A stretch of DNA of 44,511 nt from a virus. The first letter of the stretch is position 1. The number at the start of each line of letters is the position of its first letter. This document shows, piece after piece, positions 11,678 to 35,751 of this stretch. The stretch lies in IMG/VR virus record IMGVR_UViG_3300023223_001376, positions 1-44,511 of that record. The stretch is one strand, 5' to 3'. The position numbers and the translations under genes are program-made. Below the pieces are notes generated by a model. That model made no database searches, was not told the DNA's origin, and was given only the letters and a program-made list of their open reading frames with translations.

Positions 11678-12613
11678 ATGCGTAAATTCATTGACTTGTT
11701 TTGCGGTATTGGAGGTTTCCATATTGCATTGCAAAAGCAGGGTATGGATTGTGTTTTTTCCAGCGACATAGACGAAAAAGCACGTACCGCATACTATCAA
11801 AATTTTGGGGATAAACCAGAAGGGGATATAACTAAAATCCCGGAGCGAGATATCCCTGCTCATGATATCTTATGTGCTGGGTTTCCGTGTCAATCTTTTA
11901 GTATTTCAGGAAAAAAACTAGGGGTTAACGATACTAGGGGTCGGCTATTCTATGAAATAGTCCGAATTGCAGAGTACCACCAGCCTAGCATTTTGCTTTT
12001 GGAAAATGTAAAAAATATTGTGTCTGTTGACGGTGGAAAAACTCTCAAGATAATTGAAAAAAAGTTGGATGAGGCCGGTTATGAAATGAATCTCTCTACA
12101 CTCAATGCTTCTAATTTTGGGATTCCTCAAAAAAGGGAACGGACTTATTTTGTGTGTCTGCGAAAAGATATCTCTAACTTAAGCTACCGTCCTCCGAAGG
12201 GAAATTTTAAACACATCTATTTGGAAAACATTCTTGAGAAGCAGATAGACAATAAGTTGTATATAAATAGAAAGGATATTTTCTTTAAAGAAAATCCAAT
12301 CTTAGGGTATCACTTAAAACCAGTGAGAGTTGGAATAGTGAATAAGGGAGGCCAGGGGGAGCGCATATACAGTACGAAAGGTCATGCCATTACATTGTCC
12401 GCCTATGGTGGTGGGGTTGGGGCAAGAACAGGTCTATATCAAACAGAAAAAGGTATTCGTAGATTATCAATCGTTGAGTGTAAACGGGTAATGGGATTCA
12501 GCGATAACCACTATGTTAGTAATGGTATGAGGGGTTACCAAGAATTGGGAAATGCTGTCATTCCAAAGATGATTGAAAGTGTTTACCATTCAATCAGGGA
12601 AAGGAAGGCATAG
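11678..12613 (+). CDS. C5-cytosine DNA methyltransferase
   Basis: An S-adenosylmethionine-dependent DNA (cytosine-5) methyltransferase, 311 residues, the size of small HaeIII/HhaI-type enzymes. Motif I is DLFCGIGGF (6-14), motif IV FPCQSF (69-74, catalytic C71), motif VI ENV (109-111), motif VIII is in PQKRERTYFV, and motif X is GNAVIP (from G291). No partner restriction enzyme is visible, so it probably protects phage DNA. Arginine codons include more CGG/CGT/CGA than its neighbours, and it interrupts the usual terL-portal adjacency, so it looks acquired. Confidence 0.93.
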   Translation: MRKFIDLFCGIGGFHIALQKQGMDCVFSSDIDEKARTAYYQNFGDKPEGDITKIPERDIPAHDILCAGFPCQSFSISGKKLGVNDTRGRLFYEIVRIAEYHQPSILLLENVKNIVSVDGGKTLKIIEKKLDEAGYEMNLSTLNASNFGIPQKRERTYFVCLRKDISNLSYRPPKGNFKHIYLENILEKQIDNKLYINRKDIFFKENPILGYHLKPVRVGIVNKGGQGERIYSTKGHAITLSAYGGGVGARTGLYQTEKGIRRLSIVECKRVMGFSDNHYVSNGMRGYQELGNAVIPKMIESVYHSIRERKA

Positions 12614-15960: not shown

Positions 15961-16983
15961 ATGGCAACGCCAAGAATAGATACACAGGTGTTTAATGCTC
16001 TCTTGACGACTACTACTAATGAGTATTTGCCTAGATGGCAAGATCAGCTTTTCATAGAGAATCCTCTTTTAAATTATTTTAATGGGGAACTAGGGAATGC
16101 AGTTGGTGTAGGAGCAAGAGGGAAGATTAAAGGTGAGCAACCTAAGAGGACTGATACCGGCGGAGCTGCTGTATTTGAGCCTCTTTTGTATCAGAATAAC
16201 TCTACTGTCAAATCATACTCTGGTGGAGAGACTATTGACACGACCCTCCAAGATGGTGTAACGAATGCAAGGTATGAATGGATTCAATATGCCGGGACAG
16301 TAGGGTTGACTGGTAGGGAGAAGTTCATTAATAGAGGGAAGCATCAAGTTATTAGGTTGCTTGGTCTTAAGTTAGATCAGCTTCAAATGACCTTCTCTGA
16401 TCTAATGAGTCAGCATATTTGGGCCAAAGTAGTGGGGAACAATGGTAAGGATATTACTGGTATTCCTATTCATGTCTCTGATACTCTTTCTACTGGAGGG
16501 TTGAGTGTTACTGATCTCGATGGTAGATGGAAGAGTCAGAATATTGATGCAGTAACATTCTCTGGAAGTAGTGGTAATGAGGGTGTACAGAAGATGAACC
16601 AACTTTTCAATCTCATCTTGATTGAGAAGGGTAGAACTTCTGTAATCTTCACTACTCCTTCGGTATATGAGTTCTACTTTGACTCCTTGCTGAATAACCA
16701 GAGATTCCAAAATACTCTGGTAGCAGATGCAGGGTTTACTAATCTTACCTTTAACAACATTCCTATCATCTTTGATCCAAGATGTCCTGCTGGAGAGATG
16801 TATTATCTTGATTCTAGGCATGTAACTTGGGTAGTTCAGAGTGGGTTGGAATGGGTTATGTCTGAGGAAGGGTTCCAAAGACCTATTCAACAGGATTTAA
16901 CAAGTGCTCAATTCTTGTTTGCCGGTCAGACTACTACGAATGATCGCAGACGGTTGGGGTCTTTGACTAATATTGTAGCTTAA
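15961..16983 (+). CDS. Major capsid protein
   Basis: A 340-residue protein directly after the scaffold. It begins with TPRIDTQVFNALLTTTTNEYLPRWQDQLF, has an extended-loop-like Gly-rich part (GNAVGVGARGKIKGEQPKRTDTGG), a long helical segment (KLDQLQMTFSDLMSQHIWAK) and C-terminal FDPRCPAGEMYYLDSRHVTW, the order and chemistry of HK97-fold capsid proteins of podovirus-like phages. GAGG precedes ATG 15961. Immediately followed by a capsid-associated gene. Confidence 0.88.
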   Translation: MATPRIDTQVFNALLTTTTNEYLPRWQDQLFIENPLLNYFNGELGNAVGVGARGKIKGEQPKRTDTGGAAVFEPLLYQNNSTVKSYSGGETIDTTLQDGVTNARYEWIQYAGTVGLTGREKFINRGKHQVIRLLGLKLDQLQMTFSDLMSQHIWAKVVGNNGKDITGIPIHVSDTLSTGGLSVTDLDGRWKSQNIDAVTFSGSSGNEGVQKMNQLFNLILIEKGRTSVIFTTPSVYEFYFDSLLNNQRFQNTLVADAGFTNLTFNNIPIIFDPRCPAGEMYYLDSRHVTWVVQSGLEWVMSEEGFQRPIQQDLTSAQFLFAGQTTTNDRRRLGSLTNIVA

Positions 16984-17003: not shown

Positions 17004-17474
17004 ATGTTAATACAACAGGCATCGAGAGATGAGCCAGAAGCTGTAGATCAGATGATCCTTAATGTTTCTGGTGCTACAGCAACAGCAGGAATGGGCATGA
17101 GGTTTCTAGGGGGGGTGGTCGGAGAGATCGCCTCGGCTGATGGAATTAATGCTACTAAAATGACCGCAGCTCCTGATTTTAAGAACTTTGCGGGTGTGGT
17201 TCTTGAAGATATTCCTAGTAATAGGCATGGGCAGGTTAGAGCTTATGGTAAGGTAAACTCAATATTCTACTCGGCTGAGGCTAATAAGACTATTGGGGTG
17301 GGAGCAGTTCAATTCCTAAAACCGGGTGCTATTCCAGGGAGTTGGACTTCTACCTATGATTACGCTCTTGTTGCGAGAGTTCAAGAGAGTATGATGAAGT
17401 CTTTGCAAGCATGGGAGACAACTAACATCTCTGGTGGGGTACCAATCGGAAAGGGGTTTGTTAGAGGCTTGTAG
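17004..17474 (+). CDS. Capsid decoration / structural cement-like protein
   Basis: A 156-residue beta-rich protein with Gly/Ala-rich strands (SGATATAGMGMRFLGGVVGEIA, FAGVVLEDIPSNRHGQVRAYGKV). This pattern and the position one gene after the major capsid protein match phage head decoration proteins. A stable hairpin follows the gene. Identification is by pattern and position. Confidence 0.65.
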   Translation: MLIQQASRDEPEAVDQMILNVSGATATAGMGMRFLGGVVGEIASADGINATKMTAAPDFKNFAGVVLEDIPSNRHGQVRAYGKVNSIFYSAEANKTIGVGAVQFLKPGAIPGSWTSTYDYALVARVQESMMKSLQAWETTNISGGVPIGKGFVRGL

Positions 17475-17475
17475 G

Positions 17476-17529
17476 GGAATGGAAAGAGGGAAGGAGGAGG
17501 GGGGTCTCTCTCCTCTCTCCCTTTATTCC
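17476..17529 (+). terminator. Long purine/pyrimidine hairpin after the capsid genes
   Basis: GGAAT (17476-17480) pairs with ATTCC (17525-17529); between them GGAAGGAGGAG-type purines pair with CTCCTC/CTCCC. No run of T follows, so it may attenuate or protect the 3' end of the abundant capsid message rather than stop transcription fully. Confidence 0.45.
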
Positions 17530-17564
17530 TTCCAACCAAATCAACCAAGAGAAGGGGGTTTAAG

Positions 17565-18347
17565 ATGAGTATTTTAAATGAATTGCTGAGCGAGATGTTT
17601 GAGGTTGTAAGGGTATTGATTGGGATACCAACTGTAGGAGGAGTGCATCCAGCAGCTTATGATAATAGGCTAGAGATGATGAAATATTTAGGGATTGTGC
17701 AAGCTGCTTCTCATTATGGTAAGGATAAGTTTGAGGAGATTAAACTTCCTACCTTTGATAAGATGTTTAAGTTTGATGTCTATGTAATAGGGAGGGTATT
17801 GACTCCTATTGCGAGGGAGAATTTAGCTCAGAGAGCAGTTGATGAAGGTTATGATTATCTCCTCTTCATAGACGATGATATGCTCACCCCTCAAGATTTG
17901 TTCTTTCATCTCTACAAGCACAAGAAGGATATAGTAGCAGCACTAGCGTTTACTAGAAACTATCCTCACCGTCCTGTGATCTACCGATTGGATAAGGGAT
18001 TTGAGGATGGGAAGCCTTGGTATTCTAACTATGCTATCCTAGACTATCCAAAGGATTCACTTGTTAAATGTGATGCAGTAGGATTTGGCGCTGTTCTCAT
18101 TGACACGAAGGTATTCAAGGGTATGAAAGGGAAGTGGTTTGCTACTACAAGTGGAAGAGGAGAGGATATCTTCTTCTGCCATCAAGCGGGTGAGCAAGGA
18201 TTTGAGATATATATGGACACCACAGTTAAACTAGGACATCTAGGTGATCCTATCAACATAGATGAGAAATACTATGAGGAGATGCCTGAAAGTAAGATTA
18301 AGGAGTTGAGGGATGCCCTTCCTGAGAAGAAGGGGGTGGAGATATGA
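17565..18347 (+). CDS. GT-A type glycosyltransferase
   Basis: A 260-residue protein with a nucleotide-sugar-transferase layout: RVLIGIPTVGGVHPA at residues 16-30, then the metal-binding DDD at 103-105 (LLFIDDDM), followed by an acceptor-side CDAVGFGAVLIDTKVF region and GRGEDIFFCHQA, which resembles the late acidic motif. Known relatives transfer sugars from nucleotide donors in the cytosol. It opens a three-gene glycosyltransferase set in the head operon and overlaps the next gene by 4 bases. I infer a virion protein, most simply the capsid, as target. Confidence 0.8.
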   Translation: MSILNELLSEMFEVVRVLIGIPTVGGVHPAAYDNRLEMMKYLGIVQAASHYGKDKFEEIKLPTFDKMFKFDVYVIGRVLTPIARENLAQRAVDEGYDYLLFIDDDMLTPQDLFFHLYKHKKDIVAALAFTRNYPHRPVIYRLDKGFEDGKPWYSNYAILDYPKDSLVKCDAVGFGAVLIDTKVFKGMKGKWFATTSGRGEDIFFCHQAGEQGFEIYMDTTVKLGHLGDPINIDEKYYEEMPESKIKELRDALPEKKGVEI

Positions 18348-19537
18348 GAGAGCCTATTGATGTAATCATCCCCACTTATGATAATCTAGATCAACTTTTC
18401 CAGTGTGTCTCCTCTGTTCTAAGGACTCAGAAAGAGTATCCTTTGAGGATCATAGTAGTGAATAATGGTTCATATCCTTTAGAGGGAGTGTTACCGAAGG
18501 AAGTTAAGATAGTAAACCCTGCTGGGAACAAGGGCTGGACAGGTGGGCTGAAGTTAGGAGTTGATATCAGCGTTAGTTCCTCTTCTTCCTATGTCGTTTT
18601 TTTAAATGATGATACTTATGTCCCCCTATGCTCAGTGTCTTGGTTGAGGGACATGGTTAGAGTCTTGGATACCACGCCTCTCTGTGGTGCTATAGGCCCA
18701 AGCTCTAACTGTGTTTCGGGTTATCAAAATATCTGGAGTCCCCCCTTTGTTACTAAGATTGAAGTCCCATTCCTAATTGGATTTTGTAAGGTGGTGAGGA
18801 GAAAGGCTCTGGAGGAGATTGGGGGGATAGATGAGAGGTGGGTACATGGGGATGATCTTGATTTGTCTTTGAGAATGAGAAAGAGAGGATATGGATTAAT
18901 GTGTTTGAAGAGTACCTTCATATATCATCATGGTTTCCAGACAGGTGAGAAGTTGTTTGGAGGTAGGGAGAAAAAGGGAGGATGGAACTCTCAGGAGCAA
19001 GTTGAGAATACTAACATCTCAGTAATAAAGGAGCATGGATTCTTGAGTTGGTGGGAGATGTATGCGGGGGAGTGGACTCGTCTTCTCAATGGGCCTAGTA
19101 AGGATATTGAGGGAGATATGGTTAGAGAGCTTTGTGAGGGTATTGATCCTAGTATGATCCTTGACATAGGATGTGGGGAGGCTCTTACAGTTAAAGGTAG
19201 TAGGGGATTAGATAGGAAGAGAGATGGAGTAGATTTCAATGAGGGAATATGTATAAAGAAGCATTCCTTTGATGTTATTATAGCTCGTCACATCCTTGAA
19301 CATCTTGATAAGCCAGATGAGAGGATTAGAGAATGGATGCAGCTCTTGATTATAGGCGGTAAGTTGATAATCTGTTGCCCTAATGAGGATATCAATGATA
19401 CAATCCCAATGGACAAGACTCATAAGCATGCTTTCTCTCCCTCCTATCTAACTCATCTAGTAGTTAGTTGTGGAGGACGTGTAACACTGGAGAGAGAGGA
19501 GATTAATGGGATATCATTCCTATTAGTAGTAGAATAA
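18344..19537 (+). CDS. Family 2 glycosyltransferase fused to an SAM methyltransferase domain
   Basis: Residues 1 to about 230 form a GT2 domain: IDVIIPTYDNLDQLFQCVSS at the start, IIVVNNG, NKGWTGGLKLG and the metal motif FLNDD (D89-D90), with GGIDERWVHGDDLDLSLRMR downstream. Residues from about 270 form a class I methyltransferase: MILDIGCGEALTV (D274), then FDVIIARHILEHL and GGKLIICCPNED. Such a fusion could add a sugar and methylate it, or methylate a glycan acceptor. The ATG overlaps the upstream stop by 4 bases. Confidence 0.85.
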   Translation: MREPIDVIIPTYDNLDQLFQCVSSVLRTQKEYPLRIIVVNNGSYPLEGVLPKEVKIVNPAGNKGWTGGLKLGVDISVSSSSSYVVFLNDDTYVPLCSVSWLRDMVRVLDTTPLCGAIGPSSNCVSGYQNIWSPPFVTKIEVPFLIGFCKVVRRKALEEIGGIDERWVHGDDLDLSLRMRKRGYGLMCLKSTFIYHHGFQTGEKLFGGREKKGGWNSQEQVENTNISVIKEHGFLSWWEMYAGEWTRLLNGPSKDIEGDMVRELCEGIDPSMILDIGCGEALTVKGSRGLDRKRDGVDFNEGICIKKHSFDVIIARHILEHLDKPDERIREWMQLLIIGGKLIICCPNEDINDTIPMDKTHKHAFSPSYLTHLVVSCGGRVTLEREEINGISFLLVVE

Positions 19538-19563
19538 AATCAACCAAGATAAGGGGAAAACCA

Positions 19564-20469
19564 ATGATAAGTGAGGAGTTAAAAAAGAAGAAGATTGCGA
19601 TCTTTTATGATGTTGTGACCGGAAGGGATGATGGACCACCCCTCTACTACCGGAGAAACTTGGTAAAGATGGGATTTGATGTTACCTTCCTAGCTCCTAA
19701 GGACCATGAGAGCATAGAAGCTTTTGGAGATTTTTACTTATACCTTTGGGTTGACTGGGGTGAAGATGCCTTGAAGGATATCTTAACTTATATACCTGTT
19801 GATATGTCTCGATACCATCCCTCGGTCTACATAACAAGTGATACTCATCTTGGATTTGATTATAGGGTGAATAAGGCTAAGGAGTTTGACTATGTTTTCT
19901 GTAATCAAAAGAGGGCTGTGGAGGAGTTTAAGGAAAAGGGAGTGGAGGCTAAGTGGCTTCTACATGCAGTTGATCTGGATATATACTCGGATGAACCTAA
20001 GTCGATTAAGAAATATGATGTCGGCTTTGTGGGTTTTGTATCGAATAAGAAGAGGGCTGAAGCACTTAACACAGTTTTTAAATTTCAGCCGAACTTTTGG
20101 TATGGGCAGAGATTCTTTGAAGAAGCTGCCATGAAGTATAAGGAGTGTAGAGTGAACTTTAATAATGCTGCTGTAGATGATATCAATATGAGGTTTTTTG
20201 AGGTACTGGGTTGTGGGGGAGGGGTGTTAGTAACGGAGGATGTACCTACTCTTAAGGATATCTTGCCAGAGGGTTTACAAGTATGTTATAGGTATCAACA
20301 TAGTAATTGGAAGGATGCTTGTCTAAGGATGGAGCTAGTTTTAGCCAATCCTTATAATGCAGCAATGCACGTAGCAAGGGATGGGAGAAAGTGGGTGGAA
20401 GAGAATCACACCTATGAGCATAGGATTAAAGAAGCACTGATACCTATTTTGGAGAAAGAGAATGGCTAA
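19564..20469 (+). CDS. CgeB-like (GT-B) glycosyltransferase
   Basis: A 301-residue protein resembling the CgeB/glycosyl-transferase-1 group: KIAIFYDVVTGRDDGPPLYYRRNLVKMGFDVTFLAP as the N-terminal Rossmann part, a middle YDVGFVGFVSNKKRAEAL, and the C-terminal nucleotide-sugar site INMRFFEVLGCGGGVLVTEDVPTLKDIL. The third sugar-transfer gene of the cassette. Its end overlaps the head-tail adaptor gene by 8 bases, so it is a fixed part of the virion operon. Confidence 0.82.
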   Translation: MISEELKKKKIAIFYDVVTGRDDGPPLYYRRNLVKMGFDVTFLAPKDHESIEAFGDFYLYLWVDWGEDALKDILTYIPVDMSRYHPSVYITSDTHLGFDYRVNKAKEFDYVFCNQKRAVEEFKEKGVEAKWLLHAVDLDIYSDEPKSIKKYDVGFVGFVSNKKRAEALNTVFKFQPNFWYGQRFFEEAAMKYKECRVNFNNAAVDDINMRFFEVLGCGGGVLVTEDVPTLKDILPEGLQVCYRYQHSNWKDACLRMELVLANPYNAAMHVARDGRKWVEENHTYEHRIKEALIPILEKENG

Positions 20470-21454
20470 GAGAACTTATCTTGAACTTGTCAACCGCATC
20501 CTCATCTATATGCAGGAAGATGTTATCACTACGTTGGTAGGAGTGAGTGGAAAGGCTCTTTATGTTAAGGAGCTTTTTAATGATGCTCAGAAGACTATCT
20601 ATGGGAAGACTAATTGGTATACCTTGTTCATAAAGAGGCAGTTTCAAACATCTCCGAGTCCTACCATTACTATTATTGACTTTACTTCAGAAGACGATAC
20701 CTTTACCTTTACTAGGGATGGGGATGTCAAAGTGTTTATAGAAGGAGTAGATTGGAATAATGCCACCGATAACAATATTTCGGCAACTGCGTTTGGAGCT
20801 GCTATACAAACCTTCTATGGGAGTGTAGTGGTAGTTACGGTAGTTAATGCAACAATAACTGTAAGGAATAAACCTGAGGATGCTGTTGGATTCACTGCTC
20901 TTGTTTTATCTAATGAGGTAGCCTATTTAGGAGAGCTTACTAATAACCCTATTTATGATGTAGCAGACGACTTTGGTAGGAGTATTATCATAACGGATAA
21001 GACGAATAACTGGAGTCTAAGACCTGTCTCAGAGAAGGATATTGCAAGGATTAATCCTAATGAGCTGAGAGGGGGGAGTCCGCGTTTCTATTCTAGTTTT
21101 GGTGGATTCTATAACTTCTATCCTATTCCAAGTGGCACCACAACTCTAGTTGATCGGTATTATAAGGTTCCAGCAACATTAGTGAATGATACCGATCAAA
21201 GCGATCTCCCTGAAGAACTTGAACCTAGTATGATTAAGCTTGTCACTAGTGATGCAGTTTTCTTTAAGGAGAATACGGCTCGTGCTGGTATACTGCGGAG
21301 TCAGTATGATAAGGAGATTGAGGAATTGAAACTAGCTAATGATTATATCCTAGATAAGGTTGATTCTTATGGGGAAGATTCGTCTGCGGGAAATTTTACT
21401 TTCTTTGGTGGCATTATGCCAGATGGGTTTCCAAGAACTACTTTTGCTCGTTAG
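20462..21454 (+). CDS. Head-tail adaptor (podoviral connector-type) with inserted beta domain
   Basis: The N-terminal helices (KRTYLELVNRILIYMQEDV and LFNDAQKTIYGKTNWYTLFI) and the C-terminal segment LEPSMIKLVTSDAVFFKENTARAGILRSQYDKEIEELK fit the alpha-helical podoviral adaptors (T7 gp11 / P22 gp4-like). Between about residues 60 and 165 lies a beta-rich insertion (DTFTFTRDGDVKVFIEGVDW... VVVTVVNATITV), unusual for small adaptors. It follows the glycosyltransferases and precedes the tail nozzle. Confidence 0.75.
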   Translation: MAKRTYLELVNRILIYMQEDVITTLVGVSGKALYVKELFNDAQKTIYGKTNWYTLFIKRQFQTSPSPTITIIDFTSEDDTFTFTRDGDVKVFIEGVDWNNATDNNISATAFGAAIQTFYGSVVVVTVVNATITVRNKPEDAVGFTALVLSNEVAYLGELTNNPIYDVADDFGRSIIITDKTNNWSLRPVSEKDIARINPNELRGGSPRFYSSFGGFYNFYPIPSGTTTLVDRYYKVPATLVNDTDQSDLPEELEPSMIKLVTSDAVFFKENTARAGILRSQYDKEIEELKLANDYILDKVDSYGEDSSAGNFTFFGGIMPDGFPRTTFAR

Positions 21455-33408: not shown

Positions 33409-35751
33409 TTAAGCCATCTTCCAATTCTTCCCTATATCAATATCAACTGGGATAACAACTTCCCTCCCATTTATGTAAAGTGGCTGCATCAACTCCTCTC
33501 TTACAATCCTCTCCACCTCTTCCTTATCTTTTTCTAAGAATTGAATGACAAGCTCATCATGGCATTGAATGAGTATGGTTGAAGTCTCCGGTAGACGATG
33601 GAACATCCGCACTCCCGCTAGGTTGATGTGATCGCAAGCTGTCCCTTGTGGCTCATTTGCATAAGCAGCCTTAAAAAGGTCTCCTTTCTGCTCCTCCTCT
33701 TCCTTCCAAGTGGGCCATCTCTCATAAAAGATGCGCCTTCTACCTAGAGGATTGATAAGGGTTCGGCTCTCTTTTAATTGGTCAATGACCCTCTGCCACC
33801 ATTTCTTAAGATCAAACATTCTGTAATATTGCTCAAGAAGTTCTTTACATCTTTTTAAAGTAAACCCAGTCTCCTCCTGTAGCCTCTTAGCTGAAATGTG
33901 GTAGTTAGCAGAGTGACCTGTTTTCTTCCCCTCTTTTCTCTCAAACGTACCCTTACCACAATCCTCATAATCCTTGCCATGTAGCATTGCTCCCACCATA
34001 GAATGAATATCTTTACCTTCCTTAAAGGTCTGCATCATAATTTTATCTTCTGAGATGTAAGCTACAAGTTGGTTCTCAGCTTGACAGAGATCAACCTTTA
34101 GAAATAGATATCCTTCGTCTGCTATGAAGATATCTCTAATCTCTCCCGGTATGTTTTGGAGTTGTAGTCCTGTCCCTCTTATGTTCTGAGTTGATGAGAG
34201 CCTACCAGTTTTAGCTCCGGTGATCTTGAAGGAGGCATGGCACCTACCATCCTCATCCCAAAAATCATGGAGGTAGGTTGATAGGAGCTTCCTTTGTCCT
34301 CTAATATCTAGGATTAAGTTAAACAAGGGATTAGGGAAAGATCGGTTGAGCTTCTGCAAGGCTTTCTCATCCACTGTCCTAACCTTCTTCTTTTCCCCCG
34401 TTTTTGTAATCGAGAGTTTGAACTGGGGAGGGTAGCCTAACTCCTGATAGATGAGTTTACACATCTTAGTAGGAGAGTTTATATCAGGCAAGTAGCCAAC
34501 TTCTTTAGTAAGTAGATCTTCTAATCTTTTAACCTCAATCTCTGCCTCCTTTTGGTATTCCCTCACCCTATCCTTATTTATTAACACCCCTGTGTGGGAG
34601 GCCCTCCACAGCATCCTACCTAGGGGCATCTGGAATCCGTGGAGGAAATTGTGTAGCGAGTCCTCTTTTAACCTCTCCTCCAGATATTCATAAATTTGAA
34701 AAGTTACATCATTATCCTTGCAGTTATAGAGGTATAGAGCCTCAGGATCATAATTTGCATCATGAGCCTCTGTTTTATAGTAGGGATCATCTGTGTAGAT
34801 GGAGGTTTGAACAGCGAGAGCCTTTTTAATCTCAGGTAGGTATAGGTGGGAGGCAATCATTGTATCCATGTAAACAGGGTGAATTTCACCAATGTAGGGG
34901 AAAAGCATCTCCATTTCAAAACTCATGTTTTGGATGATTTTTCTAATATTCGTAGATGTAAGGATATTTCGAATCTGTGTCCACAACTTAGATTCTTGAT
35001 CTACGCTCCAGAAGGGTTTCCCTTTCTCCACGATGGGGATACATACAGCACTATGGCTTCTAATACTAAAACCAATACATTTAATAATATCCGTGTATTT
35101 GTAGGTTTCAATGTCGATAGCAAGTGCTTTAGACTCCATAGCACTAGAAAGCCAGTCCTGTGCATCTCTAAACTCGGTGAATGTTTTATAATCTTTTTTT
35201 ATATAGGTAATTCCCTTTATTTCGCTCTCCTTCTTGATCTTAAGGAAATCGAAAAGCATAAGAGGTGAATCTCCCCATGATCTCATTATAAAAGCAGGAT
35301 GGAGAGTGGGGATCACCTTGACAGGAGTCCCATCTCTACCTATTGATGGATAAGATGGTATGATAGAGCCTCTCCAGTTTGTAATCTTATCCTTCTCCCT
35401 CACTCCCTTCCCCGTTATAGCCTTTAATGCTACGTTCCCTAGGGGGACTATGACGTTTGGGTTTAGTTGTCTAAGTTCCCTTCTAAGCTCCTCCTCACAC
35501 TCCTCTAACTTCAATCCTATTTCATGCAGTTTGTGAAGGTTATTATTAGGTGGGCGATATTTTATCACATTAGTTATGTAGCATTGACTCCTCTCAACTC
35601 CTGCCTCCCTCATTATCTGAGTTAAGAGGGTACCTGAGGCTCCAGTGAAAGGGACTCCTGTCTCATCCTCCTCCCTACCTGGTGCCTCTCCCACAAGGAC
35701 TATCTTAGCATCTATCGGCCCAACCGGCTCAACTCTACGAGGTTTGTTCAT
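33409..35751 (-). CDS. Uracil-DNA glycosylase / family A DNA polymerase fusion
   Basis: Residues 1 to about 190 form a UDG-superfamily (family 4-like) domain: VGEAPGREEDETGVPFTG from residue 20, NVIKYRPP, and a late HPA motif. A 3'-5' exonuclease domain follows with DIE at 213-215. The polymerase part has motif A around D554 (KVDLCQAENQ, usually DYSQIE), motif B with H613 and Y617 (GHSANYH; Tyr at the Pol I F762 position) and motif C HDE at 731-733. At 780 residues it lacks a 5'-3' exonuclease. UDG-PolA fusions are known in some phages. It is the replicative enzyme; its start overlaps the upstream stop (ATGA). Confidence 0.92.
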   Translation of the reverse strand: MNKPRRVEPVGPIDAKIVLVGEAPGREEDETGVPFTGASGTLLTQIMREAGVERSQCYITNVIKYRPPNNNLHKLHEIGLKLEECEEELRRELRQLNPNVIVPLGNVALKAITGKGVREKDKITNWRGSIIPSYPSIGRDGTPVKVIPTLHPAFIMRSWGDSPLMLFDFLKIKKESEIKGITYIKKDYKTFTEFRDAQDWLSSAMESKALAIDIETYKYTDIIKCIGFSIRSHSAVCIPIVEKGKPFWSVDQESKLWTQIRNILTSTNIRKIIQNMSFEMEMLFPYIGEIHPVYMDTMIASHLYLPEIKKALAVQTSIYTDDPYYKTEAHDANYDPEALYLYNCKDNDVTFQIYEYLEERLKEDSLHNFLHGFQMPLGRMLWRASHTGVLINKDRVREYQKEAEIEVKRLEDLLTKEVGYLPDINSPTKMCKLIYQELGYPPQFKLSITKTGEKKKVRTVDEKALQKLNRSFPNPLFNLILDIRGQRKLLSTYLHDFWDEDGRCHASFKITGAKTGRLSSTQNIRGTGLQLQNIPGEIRDIFIADEGYLFLKVDLCQAENQLVAYISEDKIMMQTFKEGKDIHSMVGAMLHGKDYEDCGKGTFERKEGKKTGHSANYHISAKRLQEETGFTLKRCKELLEQYYRMFDLKKWWQRVIDQLKESRTLINPLGRRRIFYERWPTWKEEEEQKGDLFKAAYANEPQGTACDHINLAGVRMFHRLPETSTILIQCHDELVIQFLEKDKEEVERIVREELMQPLYINGREVVIPVDIDIGKNWKMA

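What the first reader, a model, noticed from the sequence alone, without database searches (positions are those of the whole stretch)
17565..20469. Three-gene glycosyltransferase cassette inside the head operon
A GT-A enzyme, a GT2 fused to a methyltransferase and a CgeB-like GT-B enzyme sit between the capsid-associated gene and the head-tail adaptor and overlap each other or the adaptor by 4-8 bases. This placement implies that they modify virion proteins during assembly. Glycosylated capsids are known in some actinobacterial phages, so a dedicated system here would broaden that theme and might explain immune or receptor evasion.
Basis: partly seen in the sequence, partly recalled or inferred. 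Interest (0 to 1): 0.75.

Follow-up and report, generated by a model that had tools for sequence, protein, structure and literature searches.

The report
Capsid-coat protein with sugar-adding enzymes
In the middle of its head-building genes this virus carries three sugar-transferring enzymes that are inherited together with a small protein predicted to coat the outside of the capsid, so the enzymes most likely put sugars on that coat; the general idea is known from mycobacterial phages, but I found no description of this widespread package.

Summary
Three intact glycosyltransferase genes lie between the capsid genes and a SU10-type adaptor: a GT-A enzyme, a GT2 fused to a methyltransferase, and a CgeB-like GT-B. 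One detail is wrong: GT2 and the CgeB-like gene do not overlap (26-bp gap).

The order capsid protein, small protein, GT-A, GT2 (with or without methyltransferase), CgeB-like recurs in dozens of uncultivated viruses whose capsid proteins share as little as 26% identity. The small protein (17004-17474) models as a capsid decoration protein. Across 68 viruses its tree follows the three enzymes (r 0.46-0.65) and not the capsid protein beside it (0.24; about zero in a non-redundant set). Decoration protein and enzymes thus travel as one module between different capsids. Some relatives carry serine-rich, mucin-like proteins or sugar-nucleotide genes in the same slot. Signs of DNA-base glucosylation or host O-antigen modification were not found.

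Best reading: a portable kit that glycosylates the capsid decoration protein. Acceptor, sugar and benefit are unproven. Cluster J mycobacteriophages carry an analogous insertion with a distant GT-A relative, and mycobacteriophage capsid glycosylation is published, so this is a new variant of a known kind.

The parts
15961..16983 (+). Major capsid protein (context; belongs to the head module, not to the co-inherited cassette)
   Evidence: phrog_9953 E 1.8e-44; its tree agrees with portal and adaptor, not with the decoration protein
17004..17474 (+). Predicted capsid decoration protein, proposed acceptor
   Evidence: AlphaFold2 pLDDT 86; best PDB fold matches are phage decoration/capsid-stabilising proteins; co-inherited with the transferases
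17474..17538 (+). Long predicted hairpin just after the decoration gene, possible attenuator separating coat-protein from enzyme expression (inference)
   Evidence: MFE -38.8 kcal/mol for 101 nt but z only -1.19; 3' region of the decoration gene folds better than that of the capsid gene in relatives (mean z -1.75 vs -0.57, approximate shuffles)
17565..18347 (+). GT-A glycosyltransferase, proposed first enzyme
   Evidence: phrog_1574; invariant DDD; model pLDDT 91.8, closest solved fold STIV A197
18344..19537 (+). GT2 glycosyltransferase fused to a SAM-dependent methyltransferase
   Evidence: PF00535 and PF08241 over cut-off; methyltransferase half absent in several relatives
19564..20469 (+). 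CgeB-like GT-B glycosyltransferase
   Evidence: PF13524 over cut-off; conserved in the same position in relatives
20462..21454 (+). Head-tail adaptor, right border of the slot (context)
   Evidence: PF24175 SU10_adaptor; tree follows capsid and portal

Best explanation
The three enzymes are a phage-encoded protein-glycosylation set whose substrate is a virion surface protein, most likely the decoration protein encoded just upstream. Late in infection decoration protein and enzymes would be made from one operon; the GT-A enzyme would attach the first sugar, the GT2 and CgeB-like enzymes would extend it, and the methyltransferase would methylate a sugar, using nucleotide sugars of the host. The modified protein would coat the capsid. 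Shown by computation: gene order and its conservation, enzyme families with intact motifs, a decoration-like fold, and co-inheritance of decoration gene and enzymes independently of the capsid gene. Inferred: the acceptor, order of action, sugars, timing and benefit.
For: Same order in dozens of distinct viral contigs with capsid identity down to 26%. Among contigs found by capsid profiles, 50 have decoration gene and transferase, 8 the gene only, 3 a transferase only, 13 neither. Decoration fold. Tree distances: decoration vs enzymes 0.46-0.65, decoration vs capsid 0.24, adaptor 0.32; non-redundant set 0.34-0.54 vs 0.06; example L015/L117 with decoration 79% but capsid 30% identical. No membrane segments in the window's enzymes. 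Ser/Thr-rich proteins and sugar-nucleotide genes in the same slot of some relatives. Cluster J precedent with a GT-A relative next to the capsid gene.
Against: No biochemical evidence. A signature of glycosylated Ser/Thr in the decoration protein was sought and not established. The decoration gene persists in relatives without the enzymes, so it does not depend on them. Co-inheritance could partly reflect physical linkage, although the capsid gene is nearer. Fold matches for the decoration protein are moderate (TM 0.41-0.56 for the best 18). GT-A relatives in T4-like cyanophages are not beside head genes.
Confidence: 0.62

Rival explanations
1. The enzymes glycosylate a virion protein other than the decoration protein: the capsid protein, a neck protein or a tail protein.
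For: In mycobacteriophages the reported glycans are on capsid and tail-tube subunits (PMC12619734). Some relatives have separate Ser/Thr-rich proteins in the slot that look like better acceptors.
Against: The enzymes' trees are nearly independent of capsid and adaptor trees (0.22-0.33) but not of the decoration tree. The window has no Ser/Thr-rich protein in the slot.
Confidence: 0.18
2. The enzymes modify host surface glycan, for example to block superinfection or alter receptors.
For: Phage glycosyltransferases with this role are known (O-antigen conversion; own knowledge). CgeB-like enzymes act on spore surface glycan in Bacillus (own knowledge).
Against: No hydrophobic segments in the three enzymes (maximum 19-residue mean 1.39). 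Late head operon position and co-inheritance with a decoration protein are unexplained.
Confidence: 0.08
3. The enzymes glycosylate phage DNA after base modification, helped by the cytosine methylase at 11678-12613.
For: The window has a C5-cytosine methylase, and viral DNA-glycosylating enzymes are known (Pyle 2024, cited in PMC12619734).
Against: No thymidylate synthase/hydroxymethylase family gene in 24 cassette phage records and C5-methylase in only 3 of 24. Tet/JBP was not found, but that search had no positive control. Records may be incomplete.
Confidence: 0.06
4. The slot is only a tolerant insertion site in which unrelated accessory genes accumulate; the enzymes have no link to the virion.
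For: The slot holds variable cargo, including HNH endonucleases.
Against: Fixed order of three enzymes over wide divergence, invariant catalytic residues, and trees coupled to the decoration protein.
Confidence: 0.06

Closest known systems
Cluster J mycobacteriophages (Omega, Baka, Thibault, Redno2): 8-10 genes between capsid gene and head-tail connectors (Pope et al. 2013, PMC3706429)
   Same: Same genomic slot, several glycosyltransferases plus methyltransferase, one GT-methyltransferase fusion (LittleE gp17); Redno2 gp14, directly after the capsid gene, is a distant relative of the GT-A (about 25% over half its length, E 2e-6).
   Different: Different capsid type (T=13 siphovirus), different set of enzymes and extra kinase and protease; no GT2 or CgeB-like relative found in deposited phages.
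Glycosylated mycobacteriophage virions (Freeman et al. 2023, paper not held; cited in PMC12619734 and PMC10877033)
   Same: Phage-encoded enzymes modifying virion surface proteins is the proposed action here.
   Different: There shown experimentally on capsid and tail-tube subunits; here predicted, with a decoration protein as likely acceptor.
STIV A197 glycosyltransferase (PDB 2c0n; PMC10551542)
   Same: Nearest solved fold to the GT-A enzyme (E 6e-11); essential viral enzyme proposed to glycosylate the coat protein.
   Different: Archaeal virus with double jelly-roll coat; no detectable sequence match in the profile search.
Manatee Spring Caudoviricetes MW202711 and MW202496
   Same: GT-A relative right after the capsid gene and one small gene.
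   Different: A single annotated transferase in the slot, no GT2 or CgeB-like partner annotated.

Membership tests
GT2 glycosyltransferase (PF00535) | Family profile above curated cut-off and acidic motifs | tested here: met
   50.2 bits vs 23.3; NDD and DD invariant in 11 relatives
CgeB-like GT-B (PF13524) | Family profile above curated cut-off | tested here: met
   44.6 bits vs 25
Anp1 (PF03452) | Family profile above curated cut-off for the GT-A protein | tested here: not met
   21.2 bits vs 28.8; the protein is better placed in phrog_1574
Capsid decoration protein | Decoration-protein fold | tested here: met
   Best PDB matches are phage decoration proteins, TM 0.41-0.56 for the best 18
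Capsid decoration protein | Present on the outside of the capsid | not testable with these tools
   Needs virion proteomics or cryo-EM
Cluster J-type transferase insertion between capsid and connectors | Transferases and methyltransferase between capsid gene and head-tail connectors | tested here: met
Cluster J-type transferase insertion between capsid and connectors | Homologous enzymes | tested here: inconclusive
   GT-A distantly homologous; GT2 and CgeB-like enzymes without match in deposited phages at E 1e-5
Mycobacteriophage-type virion glycosylation | Glycans demonstrated on virion proteins | not testable with these tools
   Needs mass spectrometry of virions
DNA-base glycosylation system | Hydroxymethylase of the thymidylate synthase family | tested here: not met
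   0 of 24 records including the window, controls positive
DNA-base glycosylation system | Tet/JBP dioxygenase acting after C5-methylase | tested here: inconclusive
   0 of 24, but no control rang; C5-methylase in 3 of 24 including the window
O-antigen-modifying phage cluster (gtr type) | Membrane-embedded transferase | tested here: not met
   No strongly hydrophobic segment in the three enzymes; flippase family itself not searched

The most novel reading that the evidence does not exclude
A decoration protein and its dedicated glycosyltransferases form a portable sugar-coat module exchanged between tailed phages whose capsid proteins are only 25-30% identical, giving very different capsids a defined glycan surface.
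Probability: 0.45. Interest if true: 0.75.

Novelty: new variant of a known kind. Interest (0 to 1): 0.6.

Why it matters
Virion glycosylation by phage enzymes has been shown in a few mycobacteriophages. This places a compact three-enzyme version in a widespread group of uncultivated phages, names one likely acceptor and allows a simple co-expression test. That a decoration protein is inherited with enzymes rather than with the capsid protein it should bind is unexpected and bears on how phage surfaces evolve.

Tried and rejected
Nucleotide relatives among deposited phages: none. Single-sequence scans with capsid or GT-A protein found no relatives; profiles did (against 27, 28). Conserved Ser/Thr columns of the decoration protein as a signature of glycosylation: apparently cassette-specific against five cassette-less proteins, but a more distant cassette-bearing clade also loses many of them (casB 47% kept, cassette-less 33%), so this is not used. 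DNA-glycosylation and O-antigen rivals were tested and set low. The carbohydrate-binding Pfam hit of the capsid protein (CBM_26, 17.9 of 26.6 bits) is below cut-off. The main precedent (Freeman 2023) is not held. Host not assigned: genome-collection matches lie in MAG contigs of disparate taxa and may be binned viruses.

Full report
The window is a 44,511-base virus record. Its head operon on the plus strand runs terminase, C5-cytosine methylase, portal, scaffold-like gene, major capsid protein (15961-16983), a 156-aa gene (17004-17474), the three enzymes, then a SU10-type adaptor. The enzymes are a GT-A transferase, a GT2 fused to a SAM methyltransferase, and a PF13524 GT-B. Overlaps are 4 bp (GT-A/GT2) and 8 bp (GT-B/adaptor); GT2 and GT-B are 26 bp apart.

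Relatives. A scan with the GT-B protein found 14 viral contigs, some near-duplicates, all with capsid protein, 156-aa protein, GT-A, GT2 and GT-B in the same order; capsid identity to the window falls to 26%. Profile scans with the 156-aa protein, capsid protein and GT-A extended this to 114 distinct contig groups, in which that order is the commonest; of 75 with the 156-aa gene and GT-A and enough sequence beyond, 63 have all three enzymes. A second clade has another GT-B, then GT2, then GT-A in the same slot. A third clade has the 156-aa homologue and the adaptor with no transferase detected between; GT-A was not found anywhere in eight records of enzyme-less phages, most of them fragments. 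Several relatives lack the methyltransferase domain.

Because enzyme-led scans favour cassette-bearing phages, I counted separately among contigs found by capsid profiles. Of 74 groups with room, 50 have both the 156-aa gene and a transferase, 8 the gene alone, 3 a transferase alone, 13 neither. Two of the three exceptions (L214, L088) do have a 156-aa-like ORF overlapping the end of the capsid gene; the third, L077, has a different small head protein. These counts are not corrected for relatedness.

The 156-aa protein has no family match, but its model (pLDDT 86) finds phage decoration proteins as its best solved-structure matches: HFTV1, phi29 head-fibre base, T1, TW1, Pam3, Adjutor, lambda gpD. 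TM-scores are 0.41-0.56 for the best 18 and E-values about 1e-3 to 5e-2, so this is a match of fold class, not a close relative.

Co-inheritance. For 68 phages with all five genes I built a tree per gene and compared patristic distances. Portal, capsid, adaptor and the gene after it agree (0.60-0.83). The decoration protein, a small gene after it where present, and the three transferases agree with each other (0.44-0.78). Across the two blocks the values are 0.19-0.47; decoration versus capsid is 0.24. Half-sampling favoured enzymes over capsid as the decoration protein's partner in 99.7% of draws. In 33 non-redundant phages the decoration-capsid value is 0.06 (p 0.21) against 0.34-0.54 with the enzymes (p 0.0005). 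L015 and L117 illustrate it: decoration 79%, GT-A 63%, GT2 56%, GT-B 54% identical, but capsid 30% and portal 25%. The capsid gene is nearer (median gap 346 bp) to the decoration gene than the GT-B gene, which lies beyond two other genes, so linkage by distance alone would predict the opposite.

What the enzymes act on. The GT-A model (pLDDT 91.8) is closest to STIV A197, then to collagen hydroxylysine transferases and Mimivirus R699 and, further down, GalNAc-T2, but also to nucleotidyltransferases; this suggests a protein acceptor without proving it. A197 is an essential viral transferase proposed to glycosylate the STIV coat protein (PMC10551542). Some relatives carry sugar-nucleotide genes in this slot (epimerase/GDP-mannose dehydratase-like, DegT aminotransferase, cytidylyltransferase-like) and long Ser/Thr-rich proteins: L077 192 aa, L189 about 580 aa with a serine-rich repeat, L198 655 aa. 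The window itself has none of these, so its donors would come from the host. DNA glycosylation lacks a hydroxymethylase, and most cassette phages lack a cytosine methylase; host-surface modification lacks membrane enzymes.

A test that failed: conserved Ser/Thr positions of the decoration protein first seemed lost in enzyme-less phages, but an enzyme-bearing distant clade loses many of them too. I do not use this as evidence.

Comparison with the known. Cluster J mycobacteriophages have 8-10 genes, many of them transferases, with a methyltransferase and a kinase, between capsid and connectors; the roles were called unknown (PMC3706429). Redno2 gp14 there is a distant relative of this GT-A. Glycans on mycobacteriophage capsid and tail-tube subunits are published (Freeman 2023, read only through PMC12619734 and PMC10877033). 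The present system works like these and shares one enzyme family with cluster J, but has a different enzyme set and a different proposed acceptor. I found no paper describing this cassette; the library is partial, so this is weak evidence of novelty.

Verdict: observation confirmed with one correction; interpretation partly supported and sharpened. Acceptor, sugars and benefit remain to be shown.

Noticed in passing
window 33409-35751 (-): Family A DNA polymerase with an N-terminal uracil-DNA glycosylase domain (PF03167, residues 10-161) fused to exonuclease and polymerase domains.
   Followed up: no
window 11678-12613 (+): C5-cytosine DNA methylase placed between terminase and portal; found in only 3 of 24 cassette phage records.
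   Followed up: partly
window 17539-17557 and 19538-19556: Exact repeat AATCAACCAAGANAAGGGG just before the GT-A and the CgeB-like genes and nowhere else in the window; 0.12 expected by chance. Perhaps a shared ribosome-binding leader.
   Followed up: partly
window 17474-17538 (+): Long purine/pyrimidine hairpin after the decoration gene; not exceptional against shuffles of the same composition (z -1.19), though relatives also tend to fold there.
   Followed up: partly
L189:18280-20028, L198:18585-20552, L077:9884-10462, L083:8503-8826: Long Ser/Thr-rich, mucin-like proteins in the slot between capsid gene and adaptor of relatives, three of them with glycosyltransferases nearby.
   Followed up: partly
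L077:10474-17200: Head slot of a relative with several transferases plus dehydratase-, DegT aminotransferase- and cytidylyltransferase-like genes, a nearly complete sugar-nucleotide set.
   Followed up: partly
L099:8240-9756: Three tandem copies of the decoration gene upstream of the enzymes.
   Followed up: no
L118:9801-10007 and about 50 other loci: Small 49-103 aa gene, with a zinc-finger-like look, between decoration gene and GT-A, co-inherited with the cassette but absent from the window.
   Followed up: partly
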